64,000 bases of DNA. Source: Diplonema papillatum (taxonomy: Eukaryota > Euglenozoa > Diplonemea > Diplonemida > Diplonemidae). Location of the stretch: NCBI GenBank assembly GCA_030068145.1, contig JAPJBO010000103.1, positions 1-64,000 on the forward strand, in the 5' to 3' direction. Shown here piece after piece: positions 16,827-62,325 of the stretch. A program made the translations under genes and the position numbers. The notes under the pieces are model-generated. The model had not been told where the DNA came from, did no database searches, and worked only from the letters and a program-made list of their open reading frames with translations. The stretch's first letter is position 1; every line of letters starts with the position of its first letter.

Positions 16827-16940
16827 GTTGAAGGGAGGAGTCTAGCGGGCATGGAGTCGATCAGAGGCAGGAGACGTCCTTCGGCCGGGCACAGCAGCGG
16901 GCCGACGGCGTGGCCCTTCAACGGCAGGAGCAGCGCCTTG
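16827..16940 (+). pseudogene. Truncated copy 1 of the 17.8-kb exon
   Basis: GTTCAGGTTGAAGGGAGGAG, then an ATG reading MESIR and a stretch matching the 17800 exon (GCACAGCAGCGGGCCGACGG), with about 200 bp missing between. It breaks off into TGTGCAGTCTATCGTCACAG. Its ATG keeps the same upstream CAG acceptor-like site as the full exon. Confidence 0.7.
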
Positions 16941-17198
16941 TGCAGTCTATCGTCACAGATTTTTGCTGCGTATCACGTTCAAAACGACCCCTACCACTAA
17001 CACGCTCCGTAGAGCTGTGTGCATCTCGCTGGCCGTGTCTGATTTCGCTGGTGATCTCCGGAGCACAGAGGAGGGGGGGGGGAACAGAGTGGACAAATGG
17101 ACAAATTGCAACATTCAAGCAATCGATTCTCTCGACTCTTTTTAGAGCGCACATTTTTTGTTGGTCTCTAAAAACGTAGTATTTACTGGTTCCCTCAC

Positions 17199-17505
17199 GT
17201 GTTCAGGTTGAAGGGAGGAGTCAAGAGGGCATGGAGTCGATCAGCATCTCGAAGTGCATTAACCCGCAGCACAACGACGGGGTGTGGAAGGCGCCGTTGC
17301 TGCGGCCGACGAGGCGCAGCGCGATGCCGCCGAGGAGACCGAACCCGTTGGCGAATTCCCCGCCGCCGAAAGCGTCGCCGGCGGCGAGCAGCCGGAAGCG
17401 CTCGGCGCCGTCCGCGAGGCAGGAGACGTCCTTCGGCTGCCCAGCCGGGCACAGCAGCGGGCCGACGGCGTGGCCCTTCAACGGCAGGAGCAGCGCGTGT
17501 GCAGT
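17199..17505 (+). pseudogene. Truncated copy 2 of the 17.8-kb exon
   Basis: From the acceptor-like GTTCAG through about 90 codons, nearly identical to the 17800 exon (MESISISKCINPQHNDGV...). It ends after GGCCCTTCAACGGCAGGAGC by running into TGTGCAGTCTATCGTCACAG. The frame is still open, so a short chimeric protein could be made. The downstream element tail (to 17710) also follows copy 1. Confidence 0.8.
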
Positions 17506-17799
17506 CTATCGTCACAGATTGTTGTATCACGTTCAAAAAGACCCCTACGCCCCGTCAAGCTGAGTGCATCTCGCTGGCCGTGTCTGATTTCGCTGGTGAT
17601 CTCCGGAGCACAGGGGGGAGAACAACGTGGACATTTGGACTAATTGCAACATTCAATACATCGATTCTCTCGACTCTTTTAGAGTGCACATTTTTTGTTG
17701 GTCTAATTTGACTCTAAAAAGTTTAATATAAAACGTAGATAAAAAACCTTTTTACTGGTTCCCTCACGCGTTCAGGTTGAAGGGAGGAGTCAAGAGGGC

Positions 17800-18246
17800 A
17801 TGGAGTCGATCAGCATCTCGAAGTGCATTAACCCGCAGCACAACGACGGGGTGTGGAAGGCGCCGTTGCTGCGACCGACGAGGCGCAGCGCGACGCCGCC
17901 GAGGAGACCGAACCCGTTGGTGAATTCCCCGCCGCCGGAAGCGTCGCCGGCGGCGAGCAGCCGGAAGCGCTCGGCGCCGTCCGCGAGGCAGGAGACGTCC
18001 TTCGGCTGCCCTGCCGGGCACAGCAGCGGGCCGACGGCGTGGCCCTTCGACAGCAAGCGGATCAGCAGGGCCCGCAGCACGTCGCCGGCGCCGCCCGCTG
18101 CGCGCCTGCGGCACGGCGACCTCTCGGGGGTCCCGGAGTGCTTCACGCCGCACTACCCGTCGCGCTTCACCGAACACGACATCAAAACCCGGAAGGGCAA
18201 GCGCACCGTTTCCGAGCCGCGGCGCGGGTGCGTGCGGGACCTCCAG
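17800..18246 (+). CDS. Basic Ser/Pro-rich protein, exon 1 (uncharacterised)
   Basis: The frame from ATG 17800 has near-uniform G/C third positions, unlike the opposite strand or other frames, so I read it as the true coding frame. It begins MESISISKCINPQHNDGVWK, has a Pro/Ser/Arg-rich centre and a more ordered-looking end (LSGVPECFTPHYPSRFTEHD). After CTC CAG a GTGTGC donor is proposed at 18247; codon bias collapses beyond it. A phase-0 acceptor at 20166 would join it to the coiled-coil exon 20167-20937, giving about 405 aa. A CAG at about 17775, after TTCCCTCACGCGTT, could accept a spliced leader. I do not recognise a family; the two-exon link is inference. Confidence 0.55.
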
Positions 18247-18324
18247 GTGTGCAGACCAGCGGGAAGAATTCTGCAGGAGCAGTTTGTTCTTTGTTTTTCT
18301 TCTTGTATAAGCGGTAGGTACCAG

Positions 18325-18540
18325 GGAAAGCCTGCTACACGGGACCCAACCTTCACGTGTTCGGCGGTGCTGCAGAGCCACGGGCCTACGGGTCAAGTGT
18401 CTACCGATTTCCCAAACTAAAGCATCAAGGCGTGGCGCACCTTGGGGCTTGGCGCTTGCGCTGAACACAAGCTCGTCGAGGCGGTCAGCCACAGGGCAAA
18501 GCGGACGGGGTTGTGGCACTGTGCTGCCTCCGACTCAAGC
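18325..18540. repeat. Dispersed repeat R10 (second copy)
   Basis: Matches 16128-16345 over its length (GCATCAAGGCGTGGCGCACC, GGCTTGGCGCTTGCGCTGAA). It lies inside the proposed intron of the 17.8-kb gene. Confidence 0.7.
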
Positions 18541-19383: not shown

Positions 19384-20125
19384 TTGTATAAGCACCTGCT
19401 TTGAAGGAAATACTTGAGGACGCTGCCGGTTGCGAGTGGCAGTACATCACGGTAGCAGGAGGAAATGGACCGACTTCCTGTTTGGCGAAAGTCATCCCCT
19501 ATCAAGGGATGGTCCGGCTTATCTATCTAGCCGCCGCCATAGGGCGGGCTATTGCCAAAAGGAGGAGAGCCCGCGAAACAACGTGTCGACACACGCCTGC
19601 CAGGCGGTCTCGTCCGCCAGTCAGAACGCCCCCGGCTGCGCCACCATCGGTGCAACAATCATCTTTGACAGGGCCACGGCTCGCTCCGCGCCCACGGCGC
19701 AACGACTTGCGCCCGCCGTAGTAGTACGGGGTAGTAGTGGGGCGACCGGATACTCCTCGGAGAGATGGTCCCTGCACTCTAACTCGTCTCTCTCTCTCTC
19801 TATCTCTGTTTCAGGCCAATGTCATCCTTATGCGGAGGGGATGAACAGGCTTAACCATTCCTGTTTATCAGGAGGGGATGGTCCGGCTTAAGTATTCCTG
19901 TTTGACGCAGGTTATCCCCTATCAGGAGGGGATGGCCCCGGCTTAACTAGAAAGTCATAGCTATTCCTGTTGGGCGAAAGCCATCCCCTATCAGCCTGAT
20001 ATGATACGTCACGCGCGAAGAGATTCCCGCGATGCCGACGATGCAGATTATTATCGCCACAGATTATTTGCATTTTAACCCAAACTACCAGCCTCTATCA
20101 GGAGGAGATGGACTGGCTTATCTAC
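19384..20125. repeat. R3 head, R8, and degenerate GGAGGGGATGG repeats
   Basis: The R3 head is at 19384-19435. R8 at about 19535-19790 (GAGAGCCCGCGAA ... TACTCCTCGGAGAGATGGTC) is shared with 45636-45835. Around it, CTATCAGGAGGGGATGG-CCGGCTTA occurs five or six times in degenerate form, relatives of the terminal motif at 15035-15215. No gene. Confidence 0.65.
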
Positions 20126-20166
20126 CTCCGTTTCAGGCTAAATCATCTAACCACCCCAAACCGAAG

Positions 20167-20937
20167 GTACCCCGCTGTCGCGTTCCGAGTGCGACCCGAA
20201 ACCCGCTGATGGGAGACGCCGCCGCCGGCGTGTTTACGTCCGGCGACAACCCCGTCGTGGTCTCCGGCAAGGCGTACGTGACCCCGCCGACGTCGAACCT
20301 CGACACCCGGCTGCGGCCGGCGGACGCCATCGCCACCGAGGAAGCGAAGCCGATCCGGAAGAAGTGCGGCTACGCTCCGACGGCCATCTCCGAAGCCTGG
20401 CCGACCCCCCGCGACAGCACGCCGACACGGCGCAGGCAAGGCCTGCGGCTGGTCGCGGAGCCGAGAAGCGGGTTGGAGTCGCCGTTCCAGCTCCCGTCGC
20501 CGGGCCGTGCGCAGCGGTTCAACGCTGTGGCGCAGGTGGCGTCGTCGCGGCGCGTGGCGGGCGGGTGCAACGTCAACGACGTGGTCTTCTCGACCGCGGC
20601 GCACCGGGCGCCCCCTCCGACGAGCCCGCTGCAGAACCAGATGCTGCTGGCGCAGTTCCAGGCGAGTCGGGCGCCGCAGGGCATCCGGTGCTCGCGCAAG
20701 TCGTCGTCGGGCTGCCGCACTTTGTCGCAAGGAGGCAGTGCGGACCTCCGCATCGACCCACGGGGGAGGGCTTCCAGCGACTTGGGGTCCGCCGCCGGTT
20801 CCTCCGGGCCGAGCTCAGCTGTCGTCGCGTCCGTCGCTTCGCGCCGCAGCGACGACACGCGGGCGGACGAGATCCGGCACCTCCGGCTCGAGAACAGCAA
20901 CCTCATCGAACGGCTCCGCAGGCTGAGGGCCATGTAG
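20167..20937 (+). CDS. Low-complexity protein with C-terminal coiled coil (exon or gene)
   Basis: Strong GC3 bias starts near 20163. The protein is Ser/Pro/Arg-rich and ends in a short leucine heptad segment (EIRHLRLENSNLIERLRRLR) before TAG 20935-20937. An in-frame ATG at 20032 lies in repeat DNA and is unlikely. Two readings: (a) 3' exon of the 17.8-kb gene with acceptor CCGAAG|GTA at 20166, phase 0; (b) independent gene starting at ATG 20209 (MGDAAAGVFTSGDN...), with an acceptor-like TTTCAG at 20128-20133. The motif IRKKCGY and scattered TP/SP sites suggest a cytoskeletal or scaffold protein but no family is recognised. Confidence 0.65.
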   Translation, partial: VPRCRVPSATRNPLMGDAAAGVFTSGDNPVVVSGKAYVTPPTSNLDTRLRPADAIATEEAKPIRKKCGYAPTAISEAWPTPRDSTPTRRRQGLRLVAEPRSGLESPFQLPSPGRAQRFNAVAQVASSRRVAGGCNVNDVVFSTAAHRAPPPTSPLQNQMLLAQFQASRAPQGIRCSRKSSSGCRTLSQGGSADLRIDPRGRASSDLGSAAGSSGPSSAVVASVASRRSDDTRADEIRHLRLENSNLIERLRRLRAM

Positions 20938-22885: not shown

Positions 22886-23049
22886 GCGAGCTAGCTAGCT
22901 GCTGGCATTATACTCCCTTCAATTCATCGGATTTTATGTGTTACGTTAAGACTTAAGTTGTCCACAAATAGCAAGTATTCTGCTGAACACGGTACCCTCT
23001 TTAAAGGCCTCAAAAAACGCTACAAAACCCCCAAGAAACTCGTCAACTC

Positions 23050-23547
23050 TAAAATCCTTAGGGAAGGGGAAGGGGGAGAAAGAGAAGATGCGGGGCGGGG
23101 CTGCGCCTGCGCCCGAGCGGCACCGGCAGCCGAGCCCCCCGCCGAGGAAGGTGCGGGCGGGGTTGGAGGTGTACCAAGCGGGCAGCGTGCAGCCCTCGGA
23201 AATGTCTGCCCCGGGGTTCGGGCCCAGCGACGTGCCCGTGACAGCCGCCGGAGGCTGGGTGGCGGGCGGTCTTGCCGTCGACGGCTCCTTCGTCGTCGGA
23301 CGACGACTCCGGGTTGCGGCGGCGGTCGTGCTCGAAGACAGGGGAGTACGACGGGACCCTGCTGCCCAGGCACGCGACGCCGCACGTTTCGTACAACAGC
23401 AGCAGCAACAACGACAACAACACCAACACCGGCCCGGGAGGATTCGCATCCGTCGGACCCGGGTCGAGCATCCACGCAGCCAAGCCGTACAACTTGATGT
23501 CTTCGTCTTCGTACACCGCGACACCCGCGACCAACCTTGACCACTAA
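23050..23547 (+). pseudogene. Rearranged 5' copy of the 807-aa gene
   Basis: Starts with the same leader (GGGAAGGGGAAGGGGGAGAA, ATG 23088, MRGGAAPAPERHRQ...) and follows the 23771 gene for about 53 codons. Then about 130 bp (23247-23380) are the reverse complement of the corresponding gene segment 23931-24066, after which colinearity resumes (TACAACAGCAGCAGCAAC ... GGGTCGAGCATCCACGCAGC). It ends at a stop soon after the region matching gene position 24240. Confidence 0.85.
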
Positions 23548-23770
23548 CTCTCTCTCTCTCTCGGCGACCCGAAGAATGCTGCAGAACCCCAACAAAACTG
23601 TTTACTTTGTTTGTGGCACCAGCGTAACTCACCTGCTTTGGAAAGTTTCATGTAGTAGTAATTTTTAGCATCAACAATGCATCGTCGACACAAAAACGCA
23701 ACAAACCCCCCAACGAATTCGTTAACTCTACAATCTTCTTCAGGGAAGGGGAAGGGGGAGAAGAGAGAAG

Positions 23771-26194
23771 ATGCGGGGCGGGGCTGCGCCTGCGCCCGAG
23801 CGGCACCGGCAGTCGAGCCCCCCGCCGAGGAAGGTGCGGGCGGGGTTGGAGGTGTACCAAGGGGGCAGCGTGCAGCCCTCGGAAATGTCCGTCCCGGGGT
23901 TCGGGCCCAGCGACGTGCCCGTGACAGCCGCCGGCGTCGCGTGCCTGGGCAGCAGGGTCCCGTCGTACTCCCCTGTCTTCGAGCACGACCGCCGCCGCAA
24001 CCCGGAGTCGTCGTCCGACGACGAAGGAGCCGTCGACGGCATAACCGCCCGCCACCCAGCCTCCGGCGCCGCACGGCACAACCCCACTCGCGCTTCTCCG
24101 TTTTCGTACAACAGCAGCAGCAACAACGACCACAACACCAACACCGGCCCGGGAGGATTCGCATCCGTCGGACCCGGGTCGAGCATCCACGCAGCCAAGC
24201 CGTACTACTTGATGTCCTCGTCTTCGTACGCCGCGACGCCGGCGAACGGTCCCGACCACCAGCTCTCCCGGCGGCCGTCTCACGACGGCGGCGGCGCGTT
24301 CCGCGGTTTTTCGCCGTCGCCGTTCGCGTCGTCTTCGCGGGCCTTCGGGGCGGGTGGTCGCGTCGTGATCTCGGAGGGCGAGTGCCTGGTGAGCCACACG
24401 CTGCGCCCGGCGCTGAAGACGCCCGTCGGAATGATCGCCGCCGGCGCCGACACACCCGCCGCGACGGCGCCCCGTGACTGGCGCGGAGCCGTCGCGAGCG
24501 ATGACTACGGCGGCGGGAAGCCGAAGGCTGTTGTAGACCGCACGCGGGACAGGCGGGAGGGGTGGCAAGGGGTCGGGTCCCCCCCCGGGAAGCCGCAGGG
24601 CATCGCCCTCGACGACTTCGCCGGCGCCGGGAGCAAGCAAAGAAGCGGCGACGACCGCGTGACTCTCTACGACAGTTCGACCGAGAGCACCGTCCGCGGG
24701 TTCAGCAGGAGGCGTTCCCGGTACGGGTCGAGCCTGTCGCGCGCCCTGCGAGACCTGGCGGAGCTGCACCGGAACAGCGAGCTCTCCGACGCCGAATACG
24801 CCGACGCGAAGCGGCTGGTGATCGCCGGGGACCGAGACCCGGGGAAGCTGGACCCCTCGCTGTCCGCGCTGCTCGACCAGGCGGCGCGGGAGTCGGCCGA
24901 AAAAAGCCTCGTCGCGCGCGGCGCGGCGGCCGCCGCCGCGTCCGACGACGAAGGCGTCGGCAGCGACTGGGCGTACCACCACCAGCTGCTGGCGAGCCAG
25001 GAGAACCAGGTAGCCGCGCTGCTCGACGAGAACACCGGGCTCCGCTTGGTCGCCGAACAGCTGCAGGAGCAGCTGCGGGAGACCAGCAGGAAGGACGCCG
25101 GCGCGCGCGACGCATCAGCGATTCCGGGCGGGGCGGCGGCTGGTGGTGCTGGACCAGGTGGGCACGCAGCAGCGCAGCTGCATGATACGGGATACAGGCG
25201 TCGTGACGGGCATGGACCGACCGACGATCAGGCGGGGGGGTACGTCGCGACGACTGGCCGACCAATTCGCGACGGGGAGTACAGACGCCATGGACCCACG
25301 GACGATCACACGGGGTCCGTTGCAACGGGTGGCCACACGGCGCAGCCGCGGGTGGAGTACAGACGCCCGCCTTCCGTTCGTCACGGGCATGGACCCACCG
25401 ACGACCAGCAGACGGGGTGCGGTGCGACGAGCACCATAACGAGTGCCCACGGCGGCGGGGCGCTCGGAGCGTCGGCGTTTTCGACGGGCGGCTCGAGCGC
25501 GTCTTCGCTGAGAGCGCCGCACGAAGGGCAGAATCCCTTCCGTAGCCTCGCAGACCCTGCCGGACCCTCGCCGGGATCGCCGCGGAAGGGGGAGGCTACC
25601 GGCGACCGCAACCCGGCGGACACGACGACGAGCACGACTGTCCGGGACCATGGGATGCCCGCAGTAGGCGGCGGGTCGTCGAACTCGCTGGATCCGGCGT
25701 CTCCCAGGGGGTCGGTTCTGTCGAAGCAGTCGTCGCCGGCGGGGCGGCACCGCGTGCCGGGGGCGCAGGGGGACCACCAGGTGTCGATGTCCCGGCAGAG
25801 CTCGCCGTACTTCGCGGCCGGCGCGGCGGGCGGAGACGGGTTCCCGCTGACCTACCCGAGCATTCCGTCCGAGCACGGGGAGAGCAGCGAGCCGCCGCTG
25901 CGGGCGGCGGAGGAGTTGTACCACCGGCAGCAGTCGGTGCCGGGCCGGCAGTTCCGGTCCGCGACGGCGGCGCGCTCCGAGGCGTCTACACCTGTCACAC
26001 CGGGTAACACGCGGCTGGCGGACCTCCTCGACGACCAGCCGAACACGGGGGGGGCGAGCGTGTCGAACATGTCGCCTACTGCGTCCTCTGCTCGGGCTGC
26101 GCTCCGTCCAAGCCCGCAGAGGAATAGCTTCGTCAGTCCGGACACAACTGGCGGCGGCGGATGGTCTTTGCACACGCTGAAGTCACCCATTTAG
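23771..26194 (+). CDS. 807-aa low-complexity protein with SHOCT-like and coiled-coil segments
   Basis: Single open frame with strong GC3. An acceptor-like TCTTCTTCAG lies at about 23743, 28 bases before the ATG. The N-terminal third is Ser/Gly/Pro-rich and disordered. Around residues 325-360, LSRALRDLAELHRNSELSDA resembles the SHOCT short-helix motif (helix, then -LS-EY--AK-L). Residues about 405-445 (LLASQENQVAALLDENTGLR) form a coiled coil. Around residues 475-545, GHGPTDDQ is imperfectly repeated three times. The rest is disordered. No enzyme motif, signal peptide or membrane segment. A 5' copy lies upstream and two 3' copies downstream. Probably a scaffold or cytoskeleton-associated protein; function unknown. 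Confidence 0.75.
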   Translation: MRGGAAPAPERHRQSSPPPRKVRAGLEVYQGGSVQPSEMSVPGFGPSDVPVTAAGVACLGSRVPSYSPVFEHDRRRNPESSSDDEGAVDGITARHPASGAARHNPTRASPFSYNSSSNNDHNTNTGPGGFASVGPGSSIHAAKPYYLMSSSSYAATPANGPDHQLSRRPSHDGGGAFRGFSPSPFASSSRAFGAGGRVVISEGECLVSHTLRPALKTPVGMIAAGADTPAATAPRDWRGAVASDDYGGGKPKAVVDRTRDRREGWQGVGSPPGKPQGIALDDFAGAGSKQRSGDDRVTLYDSSTESTVRGFSRRRSRYGSSLSRALRDLAELHRNSELSDAEYADAKRLVIAGDRDPGKLDPSLSALLDQAARESAEKSLVARGAAAAAASDDEGVGSDWAYHHQLLASQENQVAALLDENTGLRLVAEQLQEQLRETSRKDAGARDASAIPGGAAAGGAGPGGHAAAQLHDTGYRRRDGHGPTDDQAGGYVATTGRPIRDGEYRRHGPTDDHTGSVATGGHTAQPRVEYRRPPSVRHGHGPTDDQQTGCGATSTITSAHGGGALGASAFSTGGSSASSLRAPHEGQNPFRSLADPAGPSPGSPRKGEATGDRNPADTTTSTTVRDHGMPAVGGGSSNSLDPASPRGSVLSKQSSPAGRHRVPGAQGDHQVSMSRQSSPYFAAGAAGGDGFPLTYPSIPSEHGESSEPPLRAAEELYHRQQSVPGRQFRSATAARSEASTPVTPGNTRLADLLDDQPNTGGASVSNMSPTASSARAALRPSPQRNSFVSPDTTGGGGWSLHTLKSPI

Positions 26195-26239: not shown

Positions 26240-26745
26240 CAGGAGTAGCGAGAGCTGCAGCTGCAGGATGCGGAGGAGTTGTCTCATTGGCAGCACTCAG
26301 TGCCTGGCAGTTCCGCCGGCAGGGCGGCACTGCGTGCCGGGGGCGCAGGGGGACCACCAGGTGTCGATGTCCCGGCAGAGCTCGCCTTACTTCGCGGCCG
26401 GCGCGGCGGGCGGAGACGGTTTCCCGCTGACCTACCCGAGCATTCCGTCCGAGCACGGGGAGAGCAGCGAGCCGCCGCTGCGGGCTGCGGAGGAGTTGTA
26501 CCACCGGCAGCAGTCGGTGCCGGGCCAACAGTTTCGGTCCGCGACGGCAGCGCGCTCCGAGGCGTCTACGCCTGTCGCACCGGGCAACACGCGGCTGGCG
26601 GACCTCCTCGACGACCAGCCGAACACGGGGGGCGCGAGCGTGTCGCACATGTCGCCTACTGCGTCCTCTGCCGGGCTGCGCTCCGTCCAAGCCCGCAGAG
26701 GAATAGCTTCGTCCAACTGGCTGGCGACACGCTGAAGTCACTCAT
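26240..26745 (+). pseudogene. 3' copy 1 of the 807-aa gene
   Basis: From about 26310 it repeats the last ~150 codons of the gene (GTGTCGATGTCCCGGCAGAG, ACCTACCCGAGCATTCCGTC, AACACGCGGCTGGCGGACCT) at high identity, then loses the C-terminal frame by small deletions (CTGCCGGGCTGCGC against CTGCTCGGGCTGCGC), and ends with the shared ACGCTGAAGTCA-CTCAT tail. Confidence 0.85.
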
Positions 26746-26799
26746 TTTTTAGGACTCAATGCCTCAGGCCCCGTTTGACCTAGCCGGTCATCCCGTGCA

Positions 26800-27110
26800 C
26801 AGCAGGAGTAGCGAGAGCTGTTGGAGCTGGATAGATGTTGTACCGCCGGCAGCATGGCCGGCGGTTCCGCGGCGACGGCGGCATGCTCGCACGACGTCTA
26901 CACCTGTCACGCCGGGCAACACGCGGCTGGCGACCTCTTCGACGACCAGCCGAACACGGCGGAGGCGGCGTCGTCGAGCGTGTCGAACATGACACCTTCC
27001 GCGTCCTCCGCTCGGCCTGCGTTCGCAGAGGTATAGCTTCGTCAGTTCCGACGCAACTGACGGCGGCGGGTAATCTCTGCACACACTGAAGTCTCCCATT
27101 TAGGACTCGT
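26800..27110 (+). pseudogene. 3' copy 2 of the 807-aa gene
   Basis: A more diverged and shorter repeat of the same end: ACACCTGTCACGCCGGGCAA, GACGACCAGCCGAACACGG, then CACACACTGAAGTCTCCCAT before the stop region. Frameshifted relative to the parent. The 3' flank (TTAGGACTC-CTCAGTCCC) is shared as well, so the duplicated unit extends past the stop codon. Confidence 0.8.
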
Positions 27111-28072
27111 TCCTCAGTCCCGTCGACATTCCCAGCTCCCCAATACATGGACTTGAATGGTCAAGCTTCTCGATGCCATGTGGTCGAGCGTGGGTCACCC
27201 CCTTCTTGTTTCCGACTCGTAGATCATCTGTAAAGTTCTTCTTTCTCTTTTTCTTGGGGGTCCGCTGGACCTCCCTTGGAACCCCCTAGAGTAAACCCTG
27301 ATTGAAGTCAGGCAAATGTTGCAGGGAATAGTTGTCACGTGCTGCTCACGATTGCGGAAGTCGAAACACAACATGTGTAACCTACCGCTCCGCTTCGTGA
27401 GACAAAGCGAAGAACAGCAGCACGTTCTCGTTTCTATCTGTTTTGTCGAGAGCTGCGACTCAACTACTCGTTGCGTGCTGTGATTTGCCTCATCATCGTT
27501 CATCATGACTGGTAAGCCGATGCTGCTCGTCCGTTACTTCGGTACGATCCAGCCCGTGTTCAGAGCTGGTGATGGGAAAACCCTCAACAACAAAGCCCCC
27601 GCGTCGGCCACGACAAGGTTCGTACACGGGTTCGACAAAGGACGAATAAAATGAAAGAAATGTCAGTATTCCCCGAAATCGAAATAAATGAAACGTCAGG
27701 CACCATTTAACCGAGAGATCGCGGTGGTCCACTTTCAGCGAGTCTGTGTCTTGTTAACTCACAGTTAGTCTGCCTGTACAGTGAACGAGACCATTCTCAG
27801 TGCGCTTGAGAGTCGTAGCAACGCTACATTGAGCAATTCTTTCGTGGTTTTCATAGCCCGTTTCCGTGTCAATCGACACCATGCTACTACTACACCAGTC
27901 CGACGGAAATGCCACCTCATTTCTCCTCTTGTGGAGTCGCAGTCACGAACAGATAGGCGGGCGCCCCGTGTTTTCAACTGATCGCTCAGGATGATCTGGG
28001 CTCGGACCCACCTCCAGCCCGAACGGTCAACCGGAGACTCTGAAACACCGATCCTATAAAACTCGCAGGGGG
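27111..28072. other. No gene recognised
   Basis: AT-richer DNA with short ORFs lacking codon bias. Nothing assignable. Confidence 0.5.
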
Positions 28073-29059: not shown

Positions 29060-29225
29060 GCACCACACACAAAGCTGAACCCCACAAGCACAAAAACACC
29101 GATCTGCACACCCATACGGGATCGTTGGAAACACAAATACCGGACCAAAGCGAACACCAACTTGTTGACGGCATCGCTGCAGCCGGGAACGCGACCGACA
29201 CCGAGCTGCCGCCGCAGTTCTGCAG
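29060..29225 (+). pseudogene. Internally deleted 5' copy of the ART-domain gene
   Basis: 29060-29163 resembles the 5' flank of the gene at 29290-29420 (CACCACACACAAAGCTGAAC, ATACGGGATCGTTGGA, CGGACCAAAGCGAACAC). It then jumps to GACGGCATCGCTGCAGCCGG, ACCGACACCGAGCTGCCGCC, matching coding positions 29819-29873. About 390 bp, including the start codon, are missing. Confidence 0.75.
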
Positions 29226-46440: not shown

Positions 46441-46464
46441 GCCTCCAATACGTTCGATTGCTGC

Positions 46465-47659: not shown

Positions 47660-47763
47660 GGCGCAGTCGGCCGCAGTTCAAGGCGCTTGGGGAGTTGCTG
47701 CTGCGCGAGCTGCGCATAGAGTTCTTGTGTGCGCAGGGGGGGTTCTCGCGCGAAGAGTTCCGG

Positions 47764-50649: not shown

Positions 50650-50816
50650 CTTGCCTCATGGTCGGTGTTCTTCCCCTTCGTTTGTTTGTAAGTATCCGCT
50701 TTGGTTTCACCCTTTGTTTTCAGATGGAGTTGCACGAGCCGACCGGAGGAAGGGGTCAGCACAAGCCCCAGGAAGCCAAGCCAGTGCGAGAGGCCAGAAG
50801 ACGCCAGCTCCAATTC
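50621..50816 (+). repeat. 196-bp direct repeat, copy 1 (3' end of retroelement)
   Basis: GCGTGACGTCGTCCCAGCGG through AGACGCCAGCTCCAATTC is identical to 51025-51220 as far as I can read. It includes the last codons and stop of the RT ORF, and a GTAAGT (50688) ... TTTTCAG (50723) pair that looks like a 36-nt intron or a trans-splice acceptor. Confidence 0.93.
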
Positions 50817-51024
50817 TTGCAGTTTACTGAGGGAACTGGAGCAAGACGCATGGCTAGACGAGCACGACCACCTCGAATCGACACCAGAAGAATTCGGGGT
50901 GGGGCTGGCTTCGACGACTAGTAATATCCCGGTAAATGGTAGCACTCCTGAACAAGCCTGAACCAACAGGATCAAAGAATGTCAGTCACACCTTCCCGAT
51001 TCTTTTTCCCACCCTCCATCCCCC
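50817..51024 (+). other. Spacer between the direct repeats
   Basis: About 208 bp. One frame reads an acidic peptide (LLRELEQDAWLDEHDHLEST PEEFG...) ending in TGA; another encodes a basic peptide. Either could be a vestige of a second retroelement ORF. No clear assignment. Confidence 0.4.
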
Positions 51025-51220
51025 GCGTGACGTCGTCCCAGCGGCGATCATAGCTTGCCTCATGGTCGGTGTTCTTCCCCTTCGTTTGTTTGTAAGTATC
51101 CGCTTTGGTTTCACCCTTTGTTTTCAGATGGAGTTGCACGAGCCGACCGGAGGAAGGGGTCAGCACAAGCCCCAGGAAGCCAAGCCAGTGCGAGAGGCCA
51201 GAAGACGCCAGCTCCAATTC
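51025..51220 (+). repeat. 196-bp direct repeat, copy 2
   Basis: Same sequence as 50621-50816; its last base is followed immediately by (CTA)n, whereas copy 1 is followed by TTGCAGTTTACTG. Confidence 0.93.
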
Positions 51221-51890
<670 letters not shown>

Positions 51891-51963
51891 CGCAATGCGT
51901 TCAACTGCTGCAGAAATCAGCGGGTGGGAGGGCCGAGCGCGAAACAGAGAAGGAAGGCAAACC

Positions 51964-53841
51964 ATGAAAAGCTTCGCACTCGTCGGCGGCGCGCTGGCGG
52001 CCGCCATCTGGCTCGCCGGCGCCGCCGACGACTGCGACTACCCGACGGCGGCGCCGGTGCTCAGGACCGACCCGCCCGTGCGCATCTCGGGCACGCGCTT
52101 CGTCGACCGGCACGGCAGGATCATAACCCTCCGCGGTGTGAACACAGCGGGGAACTCGAAGGTGCCGCCCTTCACACCCGTTCGGAACGGCACGCTCGAC
52201 CCCCTCCCCGGGTGGGGGCTGAACTACGTCCGCTTGCTCTTCACGTGGGAGGCGTTCGAGCCGGAAAGGTGCCAGTACAACGCCTCGTACTTGGACTACT
52301 ACAAAAACGCGGTCCGAAACGCAGCGGACCTCGGGTTGCTGGTTATGGTCGACTTCCACCAAGACGCCTACTCACGGTTCACCAACGGCGGGTGTGGGGA
52401 GGGCGCGCCGTATTGGGCGGTGCACTCCAGCATCGAAAGGGACGTGCCCGACAATGGGCCGGACTGCGAGCATTGGGGGATCACGATGATCGGCGACCCG
52501 AAGACGATCACCGCGTGGGATGAGTTCCACAAGGACAGCGAGGGAGCGAGAGACCGGTACCTGAAGATGACTGCCCGCGTGGCCGCGGAGCTGGCGGGCG
52601 AGCCGAACGTCTTCTCGTACCACTTGCTCAACGAGCCGTGGGGGTCGGACGCCGACCTCTTCGATTTGTACTACCTGGTGCAGGAGAGCATCCGGCGCTA
52701 CGATCCGAACGCCACCGTCATCGTCCCTCCCCACGCTTTGCTGTCGGGCGCGGGGCCCAACAAGATACCGGCGTCGAATTTCACGAACTACGCGTACGGT
52801 CCGAACTACTACAGCGTGTTCGCGTTTGCCGGAGTCGGCGACCCGTCGCCCCGGAGGAGGCTGCTCGAGCACCAAGCGCACGCGGACGGGCTTGGCGTGC
52901 CGTTGATCTTCGGGGAGTTCGGCATCCAGCCGACGCAGGACATCGCCGTGACGCTGATCCGCGAGATTTACGACTACCTCGATGAGTCCGCCGGCTCCGG
53001 CGCGTACTGGAGCTACACGCCAGACTGGACCCCCGGTGAGAAGGACGGGTGGAACGCGGAGGACTTCAGCATCGTCGACGACAAAGGAGAGCTGCGAGGC
53101 CCGTTCGTCCCGCGGCCGTACGCCGTATCCATCGCCGGCGAGCCGGCCGAGCAGACGGCCGCCGCGTACTCGTACCGGTTCGCGTGGGTGAACGACGCGG
53201 CGAAGGGCGCGACCGAGTTTTACGTCCCGGCGGGGTTTCTCGACGACGCCGCCGTCTCCGTGACCGCCGAGGCCGGAGGGGCTCTGCCGGCCGACACCTG
53301 CGCTTTCGCGTCGGCGTTTGTGTACTCGTGCTCCGTCGCTGGCAGTGGGCGGGTCGAGCTGTTGGTCGAAAAGCCGTTTGCCACGAGCGCGCCGCCGACC
53401 GCGGCGCCGCGCACGCAGGCACCCCCCACCTCAGCCCCCACGCAGGCCCCCGCCACAGGGCACCCGGAGACGGCTGCACCGCCGTCGGCGGCGCCTGCGA
53501 CGCATGCACCCCCCACGCAGGCTCCGGCCACTGGTCACCCGGAGACGGCTGCTCCGCCGTTGGCGGCGCAGACGCAGGCGCCCCCCACTGTGGCACCCAC
53601 CAGGCACCCGGAGACGGCTGCTCCGCCGTTGGCGGAGCCGACGCAGGCACCCCCCACTGTGGCGCCCCTGGTTCCGACGGAGGCGCCGGGTGCCACTGGC
53701 TCTCCGACCACCCTAGCCCCGCCCACCCCCGGGCCGCCTGTCACCAAGGTCCCGTCTGCCCCCGAGGCGGCTGTTGGCGTCCGGCCGCCGCCCCTCGTCG
53801 CCGTCGCGCTCGCCTGCGTGTGCCTGGTCCTGTGGCTGTGA
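51964..53841 (+). CDS. Secreted GH5 endoglycoceramidase-like glycosidase with stalk and membrane anchor
   Basis: 625 aa. Signal peptide at 1-20 (MKSFALVGGALAAAIWLAGA). The catalytic (beta/alpha)8 domain spans about 37-430: GVNTAG near the start, NYVRLLFTWEAFEP, VDFHQD (about 128-133), LLNEPWG with acid/base Glu224, and FGEFG with nucleophile Glu318. The DFHQD and NEPWG surroundings match endo-type glycoceramidases of GH5, which release the glycan of glycosphingolipids. A beta-sandwich-like region follows, then a Thr/Ala/Pro-rich stalk with repeated QAPPTVAP and GHPETAAPP units (about 475-600), and a C-terminal hydrophobic end (PPPLVAVALACVCLVLWL) that is either a membrane segment or a GPI signal. 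Predicted cell-surface digestion of lipid-linked glycans. An acceptor-like CTGCTGCAG lies 50 bp upstream. GC3 is high. Confidence 0.9.
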   Translation: MKSFALVGGALAAAIWLAGAADDCDYPTAAPVLRTDPPVRISGTRFVDRHGRIITLRGVNTAGNSKVPPFTPVRNGTLDPLPGWGLNYVRLLFTWEAFEPERCQYNASYLDYYKNAVRNAADLGLLVMVDFHQDAYSRFTNGGCGEGAPYWAVHSSIERDVPDNGPDCEHWGITMIGDPKTITAWDEFHKDSEGARDRYLKMTARVAAELAGEPNVFSYHLLNEPWGSDADLFDLYYLVQESIRRYDPNATVIVPPHALLSGAGPNKIPASNFTNYAYGPNYYSVFAFAGVGDPSPRRRLLEHQAHADGLGVPLIFGEFGIQPTQDIAVTLIREIYDYLDESAGSGAYWSYTPDWTPGEKDGWNAEDFSIVDDKGELRGPFVPRPYAVSIAGEPAEQTAAAYSYRFAWVNDAAKGATEFYVPAGFLDDAAVSVTAEAGGALPADTCAFASAFVYSCSVAGSGRVELLVEKPFATSAPPTAAPRTQAPPTSAPTQAPATGHPETAAPPSAAPATHAPPTQAPATGHPETAAPPLAAQTQAPPTVAPTRHPETAAPPLAEPTQAPPTVAPLVPTEAPGATGSPTTLAPPTPGPPVTKVPSAPEAAVGVRPPPLVAVALACVCLVLWL

Positions 53842-54029: not shown

Positions 54030-54770
54030 ACCGGCAGCCTATCAGCAGAACTCAGCCCTTTGTGCTCGCGCACCGTCGCTGGCAGTGGGCGGGTCGAGCT
54101 GTTGGTCGAAAAGCCGTTTGCCACGAGCGCGCCGCCGACCGCGGCGCCGCGCACGCAGGCACCACCTCAGCCCCCACGCAGGCCCCCGCCACAGGGCACC
54201 CGGAGACGGCTGCACCGCCGTCGGCGGCGGCTGCGACGCATGCACCCCCCACGCAGGCTCCGGCCACTGGTCACCCGGAGACGGCTGCTCCGCCGTTGGC
54301 GGCGCAGACGCAGGCGCCCCCCACTGTGGCGCCCACCAGGCACCCGGAGACGGCTGGTCCGCCGTCGGCGACGCCGACGCAGGCACCCCCCACTGTGGCG
54401 CCCCTGGTTCCGACAGAGGCGCCGGGTGCCACTGGCTCTCCGACCACCCTAGCCCCGCCCACTGCCGGGCCCACCCCCGGGCTGCCTGTCACCAAGGTCC
54501 CGTCTGCCCCCGAGGCGGCTGTTGGCGTCCGGCCGCCGCCCCTCGTCGCCGTCGCGCTCGCCTGCGTGTGCCTGGTCCTGTGGCTGTGATTGACCAATCG
54601 GGTACAGGCGGCTGTCATCCCGTGGAACTGCATTGAGTTTCCTGCTACAGTGTATCAGCAGTGTGTCAGCAGTCAATCACAGGCTACCACACGAAGCATG
54701 ACACAGTACGATCGAAGAGGTTGTCACCTGGTGACTAATGCAGGCCATCGCTACAAATATTGTGCGTTCT
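54030..54770 (+). pseudogene. GH5 3' cassette copy 1 (stalk + anchor + 3' flank)
   Basis: From CCGTCGCTGGCAGTGGGCGG (54073) it repeats parent positions from 53333 on, including the whole stalk, the hydrophobic anchor and the stop at 54589, plus the flank TGACCAATCGGGTACAGGCG. The frame is open from 53990. Offset from the parent is 740 bp. It differs by small in-frame indels (an added TAGPTPG segment). Confidence 0.9.
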
Positions 54771-55510
54771 AGCCTCAACCGGCAGCCTATCAGCAGGGGG
54801 TGAACCAACTCAGCCCTTTGTGCTCGTGCACCGTCGCTGGCAGTGGGCGGGTCGAGCTGTTGGTCGAAAAGCCGTTTGCCACGAGCGCGCCGCCGACCGT
54901 GGCCGCACACGCAGGCACCCCCTACCTTACGCCTACGGAGGCCCCCGCCACAGGGCACCCGGAGACGGCTGCACCGCCGTCGGCGGCGCCTGCGACGCAT
55001 GCACCCCCCACGCAGGCTCCGGCCACTGGTCACCCGGAGACGGCTGCTCCGCCGTTGGCGGCGCAGACGCAGGCGCCCCCCACTGTGGCACCCACCAGGC
55101 ACCCGGAGACGGCTGCTCCGCCGTTGGCGGAGCCGACGCAGGCACCCCCGACTGTGGCGCCCCTGGTTCCGACGGAGGCGCCGGGTGCCACTGGCTCTCC
55201 GACCACCCTAGCCCCGCCCACCCCCGGGCCGCCTGTCACCAAGGTCCCGTCTGCCCCCGAGGCGGCTGTTGGCGTCCGGCCGCCGCCCCTCGTCGCCGTC
55301 GCGCTGCGTGTGCCTGGTCCTGTGGCTGTGATTGACCAACCGGGTACAGGCGGCTGTCATCCTGTGGAACTGCATTGAGTTTCCTGCTACAGTGTATCAG
55401 CAGTGTGCCAGCAGTCAATCACAGGCTACCACACGAAGCATGACACAGTACGATCGAAGAGGTAGTCACCTGGTGGCTAATGCAGGCCATCGCTACAAAT
55501 ATTCTGCGTT
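54771..55510 (+). pseudogene. GH5 3' cassette copy 2 (frameshifted anchor)
   Basis: Same unit, offset 758 bp from copy 1. A 5-bp deletion near 55304 (GCGCTGCGTGTGCC against GCGCTCGCCTGCGTGTGCC) replaces the hydrophobic anchor by RVPGPVAVIDQ..., so this copy could not anchor. Confidence 0.88.
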
Positions 55511-56130
55511 CTAGCCTCAACCGGCAGCCTATCAGCAGAACTCAGCCCTTTGTGCTCGCGCACCGTCGCTGGCAGTGGGCGGGTCGAGCTGTTGGTCGAA
55601 AAGCCGTTTGCCACGAGCGCGCCGCCGACCGCGGCGCCGCGCACGCAGGCACCCCCCACCTTAGCCCCCACGCAGGCCCCCGCCACAGGGCACCCGGAGA
55701 CGGCTGCACCGCCGTCGGCGGCGCCTGCGACGCATGCACCCCCCACGCAGGCTCCGGCCACTGGTCACCCGGAGACGGCTGCTCCGCCGTTGGCGGCGCA
55801 GACGCAGGCGCCCCCCACTGTGGCGCCCACCAGGCACCCGGAGACGGCTGGTCCGCCGTTGGCGGCGCCGACGCAGGCACCCCCCACTGTGGCGCCCCTG
55901 GTTCCGACAGAGGCGCCGGGTGCCACTGGCTCTCCGACCACCCTAGCCCCGCCCACTGCCGGGCCCACCCCCGGGCCGCCTGTCACCAAGGTCCCGTCTG
56001 CCCCCGAGGCGGCTGTTGGCGTCCGGCCGCCGCCCCTCGTCGCCGTCGCGCTCGCCTGCGTGTGCCTGGTCCTGTGGCTGTGATTGGCCAACCGGGTACA
56101 GACGGTTGTCATCCCGTGGATCTGCATTGA
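55511..56130 (+). pseudogene. GH5 3' cassette copy 3 (intact stalk and anchor)
   Basis: Offset 732 bp. Open frame from 55550 to the stop at 56083 with an intact ACVCLVLWL anchor. It combines the upstream flank of copy 1 (GAACTCAGCCCTTTGTGCTC) with the stalk. Confidence 0.88.
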
Positions 56131-56339
56131 GTTGCCTGCCGCTGTCTATTACAGTGTATCAGCAGTCAATGACAGGCTACCACACGAAGCACGACACGGC
56201 ACGATCGAAGAGGCAGTCACCTGTGACTAATGCAGGCCATGGCTACAGATATCCTGCGTTCCAGCCTCAATTACCCGCAGGCTATCACAGTCTACCGGCA
56301 GCCTACCAGCAGGCTCAGACCCCGGTCAGCACTCGCGCA

Positions 56340-56530
56340 AACCGCTTTTTTTTTCTCGCGTCGGCGTCTTTGTGCTCGTGCACCGTCGCTGGCAGTGGGC
56401 GGGTCGAGCTGTTGGTCGAAAAGCCGTTTGCCACCCGCGCGCCACCACACGAAGCATGGCACGGTGCGATCGGATAGATAGTCACCGAGGGACTAATGCG
56501 GGGCCGCCGCGAATATATTCTGCGTTCTAA
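56340..56530 (+). pseudogene. GH5 3' cassette copy 4 (remnant)
   Basis: CTCGCGTCGGCGTCTTTGTG, CCGTCGCTGGCAGTGGGCGG and TCGAAAAGCCGTTTGCCAC, then a jump straight to the 3' flank (CCACACGAAGCATGGCACGG, CGAATATATTCTGCGTTCTA). The whole stalk and anchor are deleted. Confidence 0.8.
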
Positions 56531-59825: not shown

Positions 59826-59901
59826 AGCAAACCGTGCACACGACCAGGATGGGGGAGGGGGAAACGCTGAGTGTTTGAGTATGTGCTGAAGCAGAGGGAA
59901 A

Positions 59902-61908
59902 ATGGCCACGAAGAGTGCGCTGGCGGAGATCCGCCTGGCGGCGAAGCGGGAGGCGCTCGAGTCGCTGGTCCCGGTGCTGCAAGGCGAGCGGCCGAGGCTG
60001 TCGGCCGCCCTGCAGACGCACGGCGTCGGCGAAAGCCGGCTCGAGCAGAAGCGGAACGACGCGAATGGGAAGTCCCTCCTGCACGACGCCGCCGCCATCG
60101 AGGCCACCCGGTCCCAGGCGAGAGCCGCGGCAGCCGAGCAGGAAGCAGCCGTTTTACTGGAAGAAGAGGCATCCCTTCACGCCCAGCGCGAGCAGCTCGA
60201 AGCGGAGCTCAAAACCCGGTACGAGGCCACCGCCGAAGCGGAGAAGCAGCTGATTGCCGCGTGCTCCGACGCTGAGCTCATCGAAGCAGACTTCGAGTTC
60301 CGCGAGTCGATGGTCCGGGCCGAAAAAAGGACCCTACGGGAGCAAGAGGCAGCCCTGCTGTCGGTCCTCCGTGACTTGGCCTCCCAGCGGGTGCTCGTGG
60401 AGCAGGAGCTGTCGGATGCGCTCGCGTACGAGCAGGGCGGCGGCTTCGTGGGATCAGACGGCGACCGCTCGGCGGAGGAGATCCTCGCCTCGCAGCGCAG
60501 CCGCCGAGGCATCCTCGAAAACGAGCTCGGAACCGCGGCCCGGCTCCTCGACGCTTCGCGGGCCGCGGCCCGGGCCGCGGCCGACGAGCGGGCGCGCGCG
60601 GAGGCGGCGCACGGGCGGCAGCTGCTGCTGTGCGAGGACACGCTCCGCGCGGCGCAGGCTTACGGGGGGCAGCCAGCGGCGCAGGCTTACGGGGGGCAGC
60701 CAGCGGCGCAGGCTTACGGGGGGCAGCCAGCGGCGCCGCTTCACGACGGCGCCCGGGAGCGGGATTCCGCTCTTCTGCGGCCGCGGGAGGCAGGGGAAAC
60801 CCAAGCTTCCGGAGGAAACCCCGCGCCGCCTGGGGACAGGTCGTTTCCGGTGAGGTTCCAGGAACGCGATTCCGCGCATTTGCGGCTGCGGGAGGAGACC
60901 CGCCGCGAGGCGCAAGCTCTCGGGCGACAACCCACGCCGCCTGGCGAAACCCGCAGGGGAGGGGTGTCTCCGGAGGGGTTGATCCGGGAGCGTGATTCCG
61001 CGCTCTTGCGGCTGCGGGAAAGGACCCACCGCGAAACGCAAGCTTTCGGAAGAAACCCCACGCCGGCTCGGGACACCCGCAGGGGGGTGTCTCCGGAGAG
61101 ATTGACCCAGGAGCGCGATTCCGCGCATTTGCACCGGCGGGAAGGGACCCACCACGAAACGCAAGCTTTCGGAGGAAACCCCACGCCGGCTGGGGAGACC
61201 CGCAGGGGGGTGTCTCCGGAGAGGTTGATCCAGGAGCGCGATTCCGCGCTTTTGCAGCTGCGCACGCTCCGGGAGGAAACCCGCGTCGCTGCCCCCGACG
61301 GAGGCGTTCTCCGCCGCGCCCGAGAGGCGGTGGAGCGGCCGAATACCACCACGGCCACCACCTCCACCACCACCACGGGGATCGCCGAGCTGAGGGCGCG
61401 GGTGTGTGGGCAAGGCAACTGGCCGCGGGCGTGTCCGTCGCCTGCGGGGGATCGGGCGGCGTTCGGCCTGGCTTCGAGCAGCCTGCGCAGTGCGACGATG
61501 GCGGCCGTCGGTCGGTATAAACCCGCGGACTTGGTATCACCGAGCCCTGTGGTTGTACGCGGCGGCGGCGGCGGTGCGGCGTCGGGGCGGTCGTTCCATT
61601 CGATCGTCTCGCCGGCTCCGGGAGGGGGTGCTTCGAACCAGCTCGTTTCCCCGAGCCCGTTCGCGGGGGGTCGTTCGGAGACGCTCACGGCGTCGCCGCC
61701 GTACGGGAAGGCGCCGGGGCTCGCGGGCAGCAACAACACCGGCACCAACCACAACTACAACACGCCTTCCGTCGCGCGGGACTTATTCTCGGCGGTTTCC
61801 ATGGGCACAGGCCGCATGTGGTCCATGGATGCGGACCACCTGCTCTCGCCGCCGCCTTTGACTCCGTTCGACCGCCGGCACCGCAGCAGGGCACCGCTTT
61901 GCGCGTGA
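59902..61908 (+). CDS. 668-aa coiled-coil protein with ERDSA-type repeats
   Basis: Uninterrupted GC3-rich frame from ATG 59902. Residues about 1-245 are strongly helical and coiled-coil (REQLEAELKTRYEATAEAEK, LASQRVLVEQELSDALAYE). Residues about 252-278 hold three AQAYGGQPA repeats. Residues about 285-460 hold five ~42-aa repeats containing (Q/R)ERDSA(L/H)L(R/H)LRE and PTP-ETRRGVSPE. A Thr-run follows (TTTATTSTTTTG), then a Ser/Gly/Pro-rich tail with several VSPSP sites. No enzyme motif, signal or membrane segment. Likely a cytoskeletal structural protein; I do not recognise a family. The preceding satellite may contain its promoter. Confidence 0.75.
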   Translation: MATKSALAEIRLAAKREALESLVPVLQGERPRLSAALQTHGVGESRLEQKRNDANGKSLLHDAAAIEATRSQARAAAAEQEAAVLLEEEASLHAQREQLEAELKTRYEATAEAEKQLIAACSDAELIEADFEFRESMVRAEKRTLREQEAALLSVLRDLASQRVLVEQELSDALAYEQGGGFVGSDGDRSAEEILASQRSRRGILENELGTAARLLDASRAAARAAADERARAEAAHGRQLLLCEDTLRAAQAYGGQPAAQAYGGQPAAQAYGGQPAAPLHDGARERDSALLRPREAGETQASGGNPAPPGDRSFPVRFQERDSAHLRLREETRREAQALGRQPTPPGETRRGGVSPEGLIRERDSALLRLRERTHRETQAFGRNPTPARDTRRGVSPERLTQERDSAHLHRREGTHHETQAFGGNPTPAGETRRGVSPERLIQERDSALLQLRTLREETRVAAPDGGVLRRAREAVERPNTTTATTSTTTTGIAELRARVCGQGNWPRACPSPAGDRAAFGLASSSLRSATMAAVGRYKPADLVSPSPVVVRGGGGGAASGRSFHSIVSPAPGGGASNQLVSPSPFAGGRSETLTASPPYGKAPGLAGSNNTGTNHNYNTPSVARDLFSAVSMGTGRMWSMDADHLLSPPPLTPFDRRHRSRAPLCA

Positions 61909-61994
61909 GCCAGCATAGGGACTGTAGGCCGGAGGACTTACGGGCCTGTGGCTGGTGTTGGTTCCGGGCCGTTGCCTTCGATCACCCCCTCCCC

Positions 61995-62060
61995 CTAGCA
62001 TCGACCATGCATGAGAGGCAGTGCTCTGCCTAAACATTAAACTAAGATTTTCCCCCCTGG
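61995..62060. repeat. R5 copy
   Basis: TAGCATCGACCATGCATGAG, AGGCAGTGCTCTGCCTAAAC and ATTAAACTAAGATTTTCCCC, the same as 44435-44510. Confidence 0.75.
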
Positions 62061-62089
62061 CTTGCTGCTGTTTGCGCACGATTAATGTC

Positions 62090-62325
62090 CATGGAAACCG
62101 CCGAGAATAAGTCCCGCGCGACGGAAGGCGTGTTGTAGTTGTGGTTGGTGCCGGTGTTGTTGCTGCCCGCGAGCCCCGGCGCCTTCCCGTACGGCGGCGA
62201 CGCGAACGACCCCCCGCGAACGGGCTCGGGGAAACGAGCTGGTTCGCTGTTCCCCTGCAGCAGCGGCAAGCGACTGCCACTCGCAAGACGACGGGCCGCA
62301 TGTGGCCCATGAACGCGTTGCCACC
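62090..62325 (-). pseudogene. Partly inverted 3' copy of the coiled-coil gene
   Basis: 62090-62250 is the reverse complement of gene positions about 61635-61803 (GAAACCGCCGAGAATAAGTC, CGCGAGCCCCGGCGCCTTCC). It is followed in direct orientation by GGGCCGCATGTGGCCCATGA (62293-62312), matching 61810-61829. A 20-bp block around ACGCTCAC is missing. The copy is not translatable as the parent. Confidence 0.8.

What the first reader, a model, noticed from the sequence alone, without database searches (positions are those of the whole stretch)
16827..62325. Nearly every gene is flanked by truncated copies of its own ends
MDH (3' copy 5478-5665), the 17.8-kb exon (two 5' copies), the 807-aa gene (one 5', two 3' copies), the ART gene (5' copy), the ankyrin/IQ gene (exon-start copy in the intron and a 3' copy), GH5 (one 5', four 3' copies) and the coiled-coil gene (3' copy) all show it. 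5' copies are always upstream, 3' copies always downstream, same orientation except for internal blocks. The copies extend past presumed splice acceptors and stop codons, so they are DNA-level duplications, not retrocopies. Seven of seven scorable multi-hundred-codon loci is far beyond chance and suggests a genome-wide process (template-switching repair, re-replication, or a programmed one) that repeatedly copies gene ends.
Basis: partly seen in the sequence, partly recalled or inferred. Interest (0 to 1): 0.93.

Follow-up and report, generated by a model that had tools for sequence, protein, structure and literature searches.

The report
Tandem-duplicated scraps beside protist genes
In this marine protist a good share of genes have a decaying partial copy of one of their own ends lying next to them, which was already reported for this species and is best explained by ordinary short tandem duplications that strike without regard to genes and survive only where they leave the gene intact.

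Summary
The window is nuclear DNA of Diplonema papillatum: its malate dehydrogenase matches D. papillatum entries at 98-99%. Copies exist at all seven loci named, but three are weak: MDH is degenerate, ART rests on 55-115 bp pieces, and the coiled-coil copy is almost wholly inverted. An unlisted 310-codon frame at 20.0-20.9 kb shows only matches of 24-55 bp, so 'seven of seven' is selective. The phenomenon is in print for this genome as 'repeat-bounded gene structures', with PacBio support at one locus (Valach et al. 2023, PMC10161547). In 25 other 10-kb windows, local direct duplications cover 14.6% of non-dispersed DNA and inverted ones 1.3%. For 25 higher-scoring coding segments (6 in the window), real ends are straddled by an outward-pointing copy in 9 of 47 cases and sham points in flanking DNA in 22 of 162 (p=0.36); inward partners occur at 0 of 47 and 28 of 162 (p=0.001). 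The '5' upstream, 3' downstream' rule is what gene-blind tandem duplication plus purifying selection must give. A modest excess at ends is not excluded; a programmed gene-end process is not needed.

The parts
786..1490 (+). MDH exon 1 (parent gene)
   Evidence: Pfam Ldh_1_N/C; 98% to D. papillatum MDH P0001
4984..5241 (+). MDH last exon (parent)
   Evidence: 98% to P0002 residues 230-310
5479..5656 (+). degenerate 3' copy of MDH end (of about 5192-5369, across the stop codon)
   Evidence: three colinear pieces, 76-91%
16701..16934 (+). 5' copy 1 of the 17.8-kb exon
   Evidence: self-BLAST 70-83%
17082..17494 (+). 5' copy 2 of the 17.8-kb exon
   Evidence: self-BLAST, 86% over 674 columns in the pair 16864-17494/17416-18066
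17743..18420 (+). open frame of the 17.8-kb exon (parent)
   Evidence: open frame, coding score 42
23013..23552 (+). 5' copy of the 807-aa frame
   Evidence: flanks 94% and 92% to 23692-23934 and 24102-24267
23246..23382 (-). block inverted in place inside the 5' copy
   Evidence: 98.5% to reverse complement of 23932-24068
23771..26194 (+). 807-aa open frame (parent)
   Evidence: coding score 115; no homologue found
26314..26883 (+). 3' copy 1 of the 807-aa frame
   Evidence: 85.6% to 25734-26329, gap -16
26776..27121 (+). 3' copy 2 of the 807-aa frame
   Evidence: 75% to 25848-26212
29064..29221 (+). 5' copy at the ART gene (two pieces of different identity)
   Evidence: 73% over 115 and 93% over 55 columns
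29467..33015 (+). ART gene open frame (parent)
   Evidence: Pfam PF01129, E 8.8e-11
42359..42497 (+). upstream copy of an exon start at the ankyrin locus
   Evidence: 82% to 42785-42941; ankyrin match in frame 41876-42355; the IQ motif was not tested
43501..43875 (+). downstream copy of 42962-43336
   Evidence: 95.2%
46446..46691 (+). 5' copy of the GH5 gene, upstream of the inserted element
   Evidence: 84.8% to 51893-52169
47695..51220 (+). retroelement (RNase H-like domain; 3' part repeated 50621-50816/51025-51220) between the GH5 copy and GH5; outer limits approximate
   Evidence: its 3' end is multicopy: 48 matches listed, 23 of them 98-100% over query 1-621 or more, the window's own included (40 of 1320 candidates scored)
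51893..53841 (+). GH5 gene (parent)
   Evidence: Pfam PF00150, E 3.4e-20; start approximate
54061..56446 (+). tandem 3' copies of GH5, unit about 740 bp
   Evidence: 92-93%
62086..62317 (-). 3' copy of the coiled-coil frame: 62270-62086 inverted, then 27 bp direct
   Evidence: 88% over 200, 85% over 27 columns
20005..20937 (+). 310-codon frame without a comparable local copy (counter-example)
   Evidence: only matches of 24-55 bp

Best explanation
D. papillatum DNA continually gains short tandem duplications (repeat offsets from under 100 to about 800 bp; I counted those of 150 bp or more) at places that take little or no account of genes. A duplication that straddles a gene boundary leaves one intact gene plus a truncated copy, and geometry forces a truncated 5' copy upstream and a truncated 3' copy downstream, in the same orientation. 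Duplications lying wholly inside a coding region damage it and are removed by selection. Surviving copies are neutral and decay by substitution, deletion, small inversions and insertion of mobile elements, which gives the mix of 70-100% identity, spacers and inverted blocks. Shown on a small sample: abundance, direct-over-inverted bias, flat density across gene ends, nearly empty coding interiors, no inward events at higher-scoring genes. Inferred: selection as the filter, continuing birth, neutrality of the copies, and replication slippage, template switching or end joining as the birth mechanism.
For: At least one direct repeat pair in 21 of 25 other windows, an inverted one in 7 of 25. Clean local coverage 14.6% direct against 1.3% inverted of 221,087 bases. 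Sham-boundary test, score 60 or more: outward 9/47 real and 22/162 sham (p=0.36), inward 0/47 and 28/162 (p=0.001); score 45 or more: 11/51 and 22/174 (p=0.12), inward 0/51 and 28/174 (p=0.0006). Coverage inside coding in the sample falls 0.31, 0.20, 0.08, 0.04 and 0 of 21,395 bases with depth; a gene-blind simulation in which internal events are removed gives 1.20, 0.90, 0.63, 0.36, 0.14 relative to far flank. Of 60 families (window included, mobile elements not removed) 25 have no gap between copies. In 8 of 23 spaced pairs the spacer resembles DNA next to the pair, against 7 of 230 controls, so a part of the spaced pairs are decayed tandems. A young case: L029 1369-2190/2189-3010, 822 columns at 100%, 2-bp overlap, reaching 66 bp into an open frame with a weak GDSL-like match below Pfam's cut-off; about half of its unit is dispersed sequence, so it is not in the clean counts.
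Against: With the loose gene set (score 35 or more) outward copies at real ends exceed sham points (23/74 against 40/251, p=0.007; window alone 9/22 against 12/75, p=0.019) and inward partners occur (8/74 against 49/251). Dropping six segments that are copies or array units gives 13/62 against 27/218 (p=0.10) and inward 0/62 against 32/218 (p=0.0004). The rate at real ends stays the higher one in every pooled version, so an excess of about 1.5-fold is not excluded. A coordinate-shift control, which ignores that duplications lie near genes, gives 9/28 against a mean of 2.43 (0 of 2000 shifts) in the sample and 5/11 against 1.82 (P=0.0175) in the window. Coverage is about threefold higher within 500 bp of coding segments than beyond 5 kb (0.33-0.35 against 0.10, bootstrap intervals just overlapping). 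Coverage falls faster inside genes than simulated. 33 of 60 families have a gap over 50 bp, and 15 of 23 spaced pairs show no spacer evidence for tandem origin. Two copies carry inverted blocks. Sham points share duplications, so the Fisher values are approximate.
Confidence: 0.8

Rival explanations
1. A process aimed at gene ends (transcription- or processing-linked, such as R-loops, replication-transcription clashes or a programmed copier) makes the copies.
For: The loose gene set shows excess at ends (p=0.007); the shift control is exceeded; duplication coverage is higher near genes than far away.
Against: Higher-scoring genes show no significant excess (9/47 against 22/162), nor does the loose set without copies (p=0.10); density is flat across the boundary; 5' and 3' ends alike (5 and 4); many families touch no predicted coding segment.
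Confidence: 0.12
2. Assembly artefact: false tandem copies made by misjoined reads.
For: Contig C934 repeats window 3500-7020 at 99.9% over the 3523 bases compared, so the assembly may hold some redundancy; a few copies are 100% identical (L029, L015).
Against: Nine of ten identity deciles of the 60 families lie between 70% and 95%, which misassembly of a genome reported as haploid would not make; Valach et al. show PacBio reads across one such array (section 7 read).
Confidence: 0.03
3. Retrocopies or transposon-carried gene pieces.
For: Some repeat pairs are parts of mobile elements: 17 of 74 families recur in another sampled window, among them 9 of the 23 spaced ones, and 50621/51025 is an element's 3' end that this mask missed.
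Against: Copies lie beside the parent, mostly on the same strand, include DNA outside the coding segment and occur for 5' ends alone; 57 of 74 families do not recur in the other windows.
Confidence: 0.03
4. Chance or low-complexity similarity.
For: MDH and ART copies are short or degenerate.
Against: Direct far exceeds inverted coverage in the same sequence (14.6% against 1.3%); 23 of 60 families are over 300 columns at over 85%.
Confidence: 0.02

Closest known systems
Repeat-bounded gene structures of D. papillatum (Valach et al. 2023, BMC Biol 21:99, PMC10161547; abstract, sections 5 and 7 and search passages read)
   Same: Same species; [quoted passage not shown] an example with 12-13 upstream copies at 47-96% identity, confirmed by PacBio reads.
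   Different: Dozens of cases met during expert validation; the parts I read give no rate, mechanism, gene-end test or inverted blocks. The supplement was not read.
Partial gene copies made by tandem duplication, as in Drosophila yakuba (Rogers et al. 2017, PMC5460883, abstract read)
   Same: Tandem duplications that produce altered or chimeric gene structures.
   Different: There they are discussed as sources of new expression and genes; here units are a few hundred bp and the copies look like decaying remnants.
Segmental duplication by microhomology/microsatellite-induced replication in yeast (Payen et al. 2008, PMC2518615, abstract read)
   Same: Candidate birth mechanism: template switching without long homology.
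   Different: No genetic or junction evidence here ties D. papillatum to it.

Membership tests
Repeat-bounded gene structure (Valach 2023) | same genome | tested here: met
   MDH 98-99% to named D. papillatum entries; genome 271 Mb against 280 Mb published
Repeat-bounded gene structure (Valach 2023) | 5' part of gene with CDS repeated upstream, or 3' end repeated downstream | tested here: met
Repeat-bounded gene structure (Valach 2023) | long reads confirm the arrangement at this locus | not testable with these tools
   no reads held; published for one other locus
Repeat-bounded gene structure (Valach 2023) | repeats absent from mature mRNA | not testable with these tools
   no RNA data held
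Tandem duplication | copies in same orientation | tested here: met
   clean coverage direct 14.6%, inverted 1.3%; exceptions 23246-23382 and 62086-62270
Tandem duplication | copies adjacent | tested here: inconclusive
   25 of 60 families gap 0 or less, 2 within 50 bp, 33 larger; spacer evidence for tandem origin in 8 of 23
Tandem duplication | unit includes DNA beyond the gene boundary | tested here: met
   21 boundary-crossing pairs, some nested in one family, all with the partner outward; pairs whose partner lies in the same coding segment were left out of that list by design
Processed retrocopy | insertion away from parent and 3'-biased | tested here: not met
   copies local, 5' and 3' alike
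Processed retrocopy | poly(A) at the end, introns missing | not tested
   no RNA-based gene models; poly(A) not examined
Programmed gene-end copying | gene ends hit more than neighbouring DNA | tested here: inconclusive
   9/47 against 22/162, p=0.36; loose set p=0.007, p=0.10 without six copy or array segments

The most novel reading that the evidence does not exclude
D. papillatum has an unusually active short-range duplication process, perhaps a lineage-specific repair or replication habit and perhaps stronger near transcribed DNA, such that about one seventh of its non-dispersed DNA lies in recognisable local duplicates, with frequent small in-place inversions as a by-product.
Probability: 0.25. 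Interest if true: 0.5.

Novelty: already known. Interest (0 to 1): 0.3.

Why it matters
It turns a striking pattern into a testable mutation process that need not know where genes are. Gene annotation in diplonemids must expect false exons and split gene models beside real genes, as the genome paper itself warns. The decaying copies could serve as neutral clocks for duplication and deletion rates in a little-studied eukaryote.

Tried and rejected
A programmed gene-end copier: not needed, though not excluded as a modest bias. Early counts favoured it: 10 of 29 loose coding segments in the sample against 9.7-10.9% expected and 6 of 12 in the window against 15-17%; 9 of 28 against 2.43 and 5 of 11 against 1.82 after cleaning. 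Those controls move duplications or sham genes anywhere in the stretch and so ignore that duplications lie near genes. Only 2 of the 14 segments counted are themselves copies (26334-26654, L028 693-896). The sham-boundary test keeps the neighbourhood. In its loose version six segments are copies or array units (26334-26654, 43536-43817, L014 7897-8154, L018 4968-5180 and 9192-9410, L028 693-896); without them p goes from 0.007 to 0.10, and all 8 inward cases vanish.

Rows dropped: the CTA-repeat segment 47314-47817 from then on (still in the coding total); segment 51135-51941 (also mostly CTA repeat) and L025 7895-7921 (dispersed) from then on; pairs at least 30% dispersed from then on, which took the L029 example out of the counts. 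The GH5 5' pair lies just over 5 kb apart and so never entered the counts.

High-identity spaced pairs looked like a non-tandem copying mechanism; several proved to be parts of dispersed elements (50621/51025; L028 8296 and L030 2319, each recurring in 11 other windows).

Genome-wide domain searches gave little: Ras shows two likely truncated copies beside full genes (C292 upstream, C738 downstream with a stop), UQ_con a likely damaged copy upstream of a full gene on C36; not scored further. The 807-aa frame found no homologue at E 0.001 or better among the 7992 candidates scored. Rfam at gathering threshold gave one LSU rRNA fragment.

Limits: the gene set rests on my own codon model, trained on this window and sample, not on RNA. 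20 of the 25 windows are the first 20 of a sorted draw of 200, so they come from long contigs (466-765 kb); the other 5 I picked by hand from the same draw. They are not a full random sample. The mask for dispersed sequence sees only elements shared between sampled windows (12-13% of bases) where the paper gives 52% repeats. One higher-scoring coding segment (L031 4603-9009) is a LINE-type reverse transcriptase; without it the result is 9/45 against 21/155 and inward 0/45 against 27/155. Several tests were run on one small sample without correction. The simulation uses 53 of the 60 offsets and removes internal events by rule. A paper search on partial gene duplication returned nothing, a wider one 101 papers of which I opened two abstracts, one on close direct repeats one unrelated paper, one on diplonemids 59 of which 12 were listed.


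Full report
What it is. The window is contig C103 of a 271-Mb eukaryote assembly. The malate dehydrogenase at 786-1490 and 4984-5241 matches Diplonema papillatum entries at 98-99%. The genome paper for this species (Valach et al. 2023, PMC10161547; [quoted passage not shown] It calls them repeat-bounded gene structures and shows PacBio support for one array of 12-13 copies.

The observation. Self-alignment confirms copies at the seven loci (coordinates in the observation check and parts). MDH and ART are weak, and the coiled-coil copy is nearly all inverted. The GH5 5' copy lies 5.4 kb upstream because a multicopy retroelement, flanked by ACT-type repeats, sits between it and the gene. The 310-codon frame at 20005-20937 has no comparable copy, so 'seven of seven' leaves out a scorable locus. 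The 807-aa frame has no homologue in the protein search, and its gene status rests on its length and codon score.

Genome sample. Of 25 other 10-kb windows, 21 hold a direct repeat pair and 7 an inverted one. After masking sequence that recurs between windows, local direct duplications (offset 150-5000 bp, 80 columns or more) cover 14.6% and inverted ones 1.3% of 221,087 bases; in the window the figures are 26.2% and 3.6% of 55,666. This window is richer than the sample but not of another kind. Identities of the 60 families span 70-100%, which suggests a continuing process rather than a burst.

Are gene ends special? I built a codon model and took coding segments. With segments scoring 60 or more (25 segments, 47 usable ends, window included), 9 ends are straddled by a copy whose partner lies outward, against 22 of 162 sham points 300-2000 bp out in flanking DNA (p=0.36). 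Inward partners occur at 0 of 47 real ends and 28 of 162 sham points (p=0.001). In the sample without the window the counts are 6/35 against 15/118 (p=0.58) and 0/35 against 17/118 (p=0.013); in the window alone 3/12 against 7/44 (p=0.43) and 0/12 against 11/44 (p=0.097). At score 100 or more they are 6/31 against 16/107 (p=0.58) and 0/31 against 18/107 (p=0.013). With the loose set (score 35 or more) outward copies do exceed sham (23/74 against 40/251, p=0.007) and inward ones occur (8/74 against 49/251, p=0.12). When the six segments that are copies or array units are left out, this becomes 13/62 against 27/218 (p=0.10) and 0/62 against 32/218 (p=0.0004). Real ends have the higher rate in each pooled version, so a modest excess stays possible. 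A pair with one copy in a conserved gene should also stay recognisable longer than a pair in free DNA, which would by itself give up to a doubling (inference). Of 19 segments scoring 60 or more in the sample, 6 have an end copy; one of them is a calpain-type gene and one an EF-hand gene.

Profile. Coverage by clean direct duplications in the sample is 0.35 at 200-500 bp outside, 0.33 at 0-200 bp outside, 0.31 at 0-100 bp inside, then 0.20, 0.08, 0.04 and 0 of 21,395 bases deeper than 500 bp; in the window the deepest class holds 33 of 4617. A simulation with uniform duplications, observed unit sizes and removal of internal events gives a similar shape, though a slower fall. The remaining slope from near genes to beyond 5 kb (0.34 to 0.10) may be dilution by mobile elements missed by my mask, slower loss of copies anchored in a conserved gene, or a real preference; the bootstrap intervals just overlap.

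Mechanism. Tandem duplication of a segment running from outside a gene into it leaves the intact gene on the far side of the truncated copy: 5' pieces must lie upstream, 3' pieces downstream, same strand. Of 60 families 25 have no gap, 2 a gap up to 50 bp and 33 a larger one. Of 23 spaced pairs tested, 8 have a spacer resembling adjacent DNA against 7 of 230 controls, as expected for decayed tandems; 9 of the 23 recur in other windows and are likely mobile-element parts. The 5' copy of the 807-aa frame carries a 137-bp block inverted in place (98.5%) between direct flanks at 94% and 92%; a small later inversion or a template switch would do this. Birth by slippage, template switching or end joining cannot be told apart here.

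Verdict. Real, widespread in this genome, already described in this species; best read as short tandem duplication, blind or nearly blind to genes, seen through purifying selection. The addition here is the quantification and the sham-boundary test, on a small sample with a home-made gene set.

Noticed in passing
46872-51890: A multicopy retroelement (RNase H-like domain) lies between an (ACT)n array of about 790 bp and a (CTA)n array of about 670 bp; 9 of 48 listed genomic matches of its 3' end, the window's own included, run on into the CTA repeat, so target choice or a repeat tail is possible.
   Followed up: partly
786-5241 and proteins P0001/P0002: Two D. papillatum malate dehydrogenase records share about the first 230 residues (by eye), but the C-terminal part of P0001 is only 37% like the window exon at 4981-5226, which P0002 matches at 98%. 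Alternative last exons or a second locus; the genome search did not complete.
   Followed up: partly
5684-8906: 82-bp tandem array, 39 copies at 99%; contig C934 (L001) starts inside it and repeats window 3500-7020 at 99.9%, so assembly redundancy or a recent large duplication.
   Followed up: partly
9848-10044 (-): Fragment of large-subunit rRNA; the genome paper reports about 3600 such 28S pieces scattered in this genome.
   Followed up: no
23246-23382 and 62086-62270: Copies with inverted blocks next to direct flanks, hinting at small inversions as a by-product of the duplication process.
   Followed up: partly
L029 1369-3010: 820-bp unit in perfect tandem (100% over 822 columns, 2-bp overlap) that holds dispersed repeat sequence and reaches 66 bp into an open frame with a weak GDSL-like match.
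   Followed up: partly
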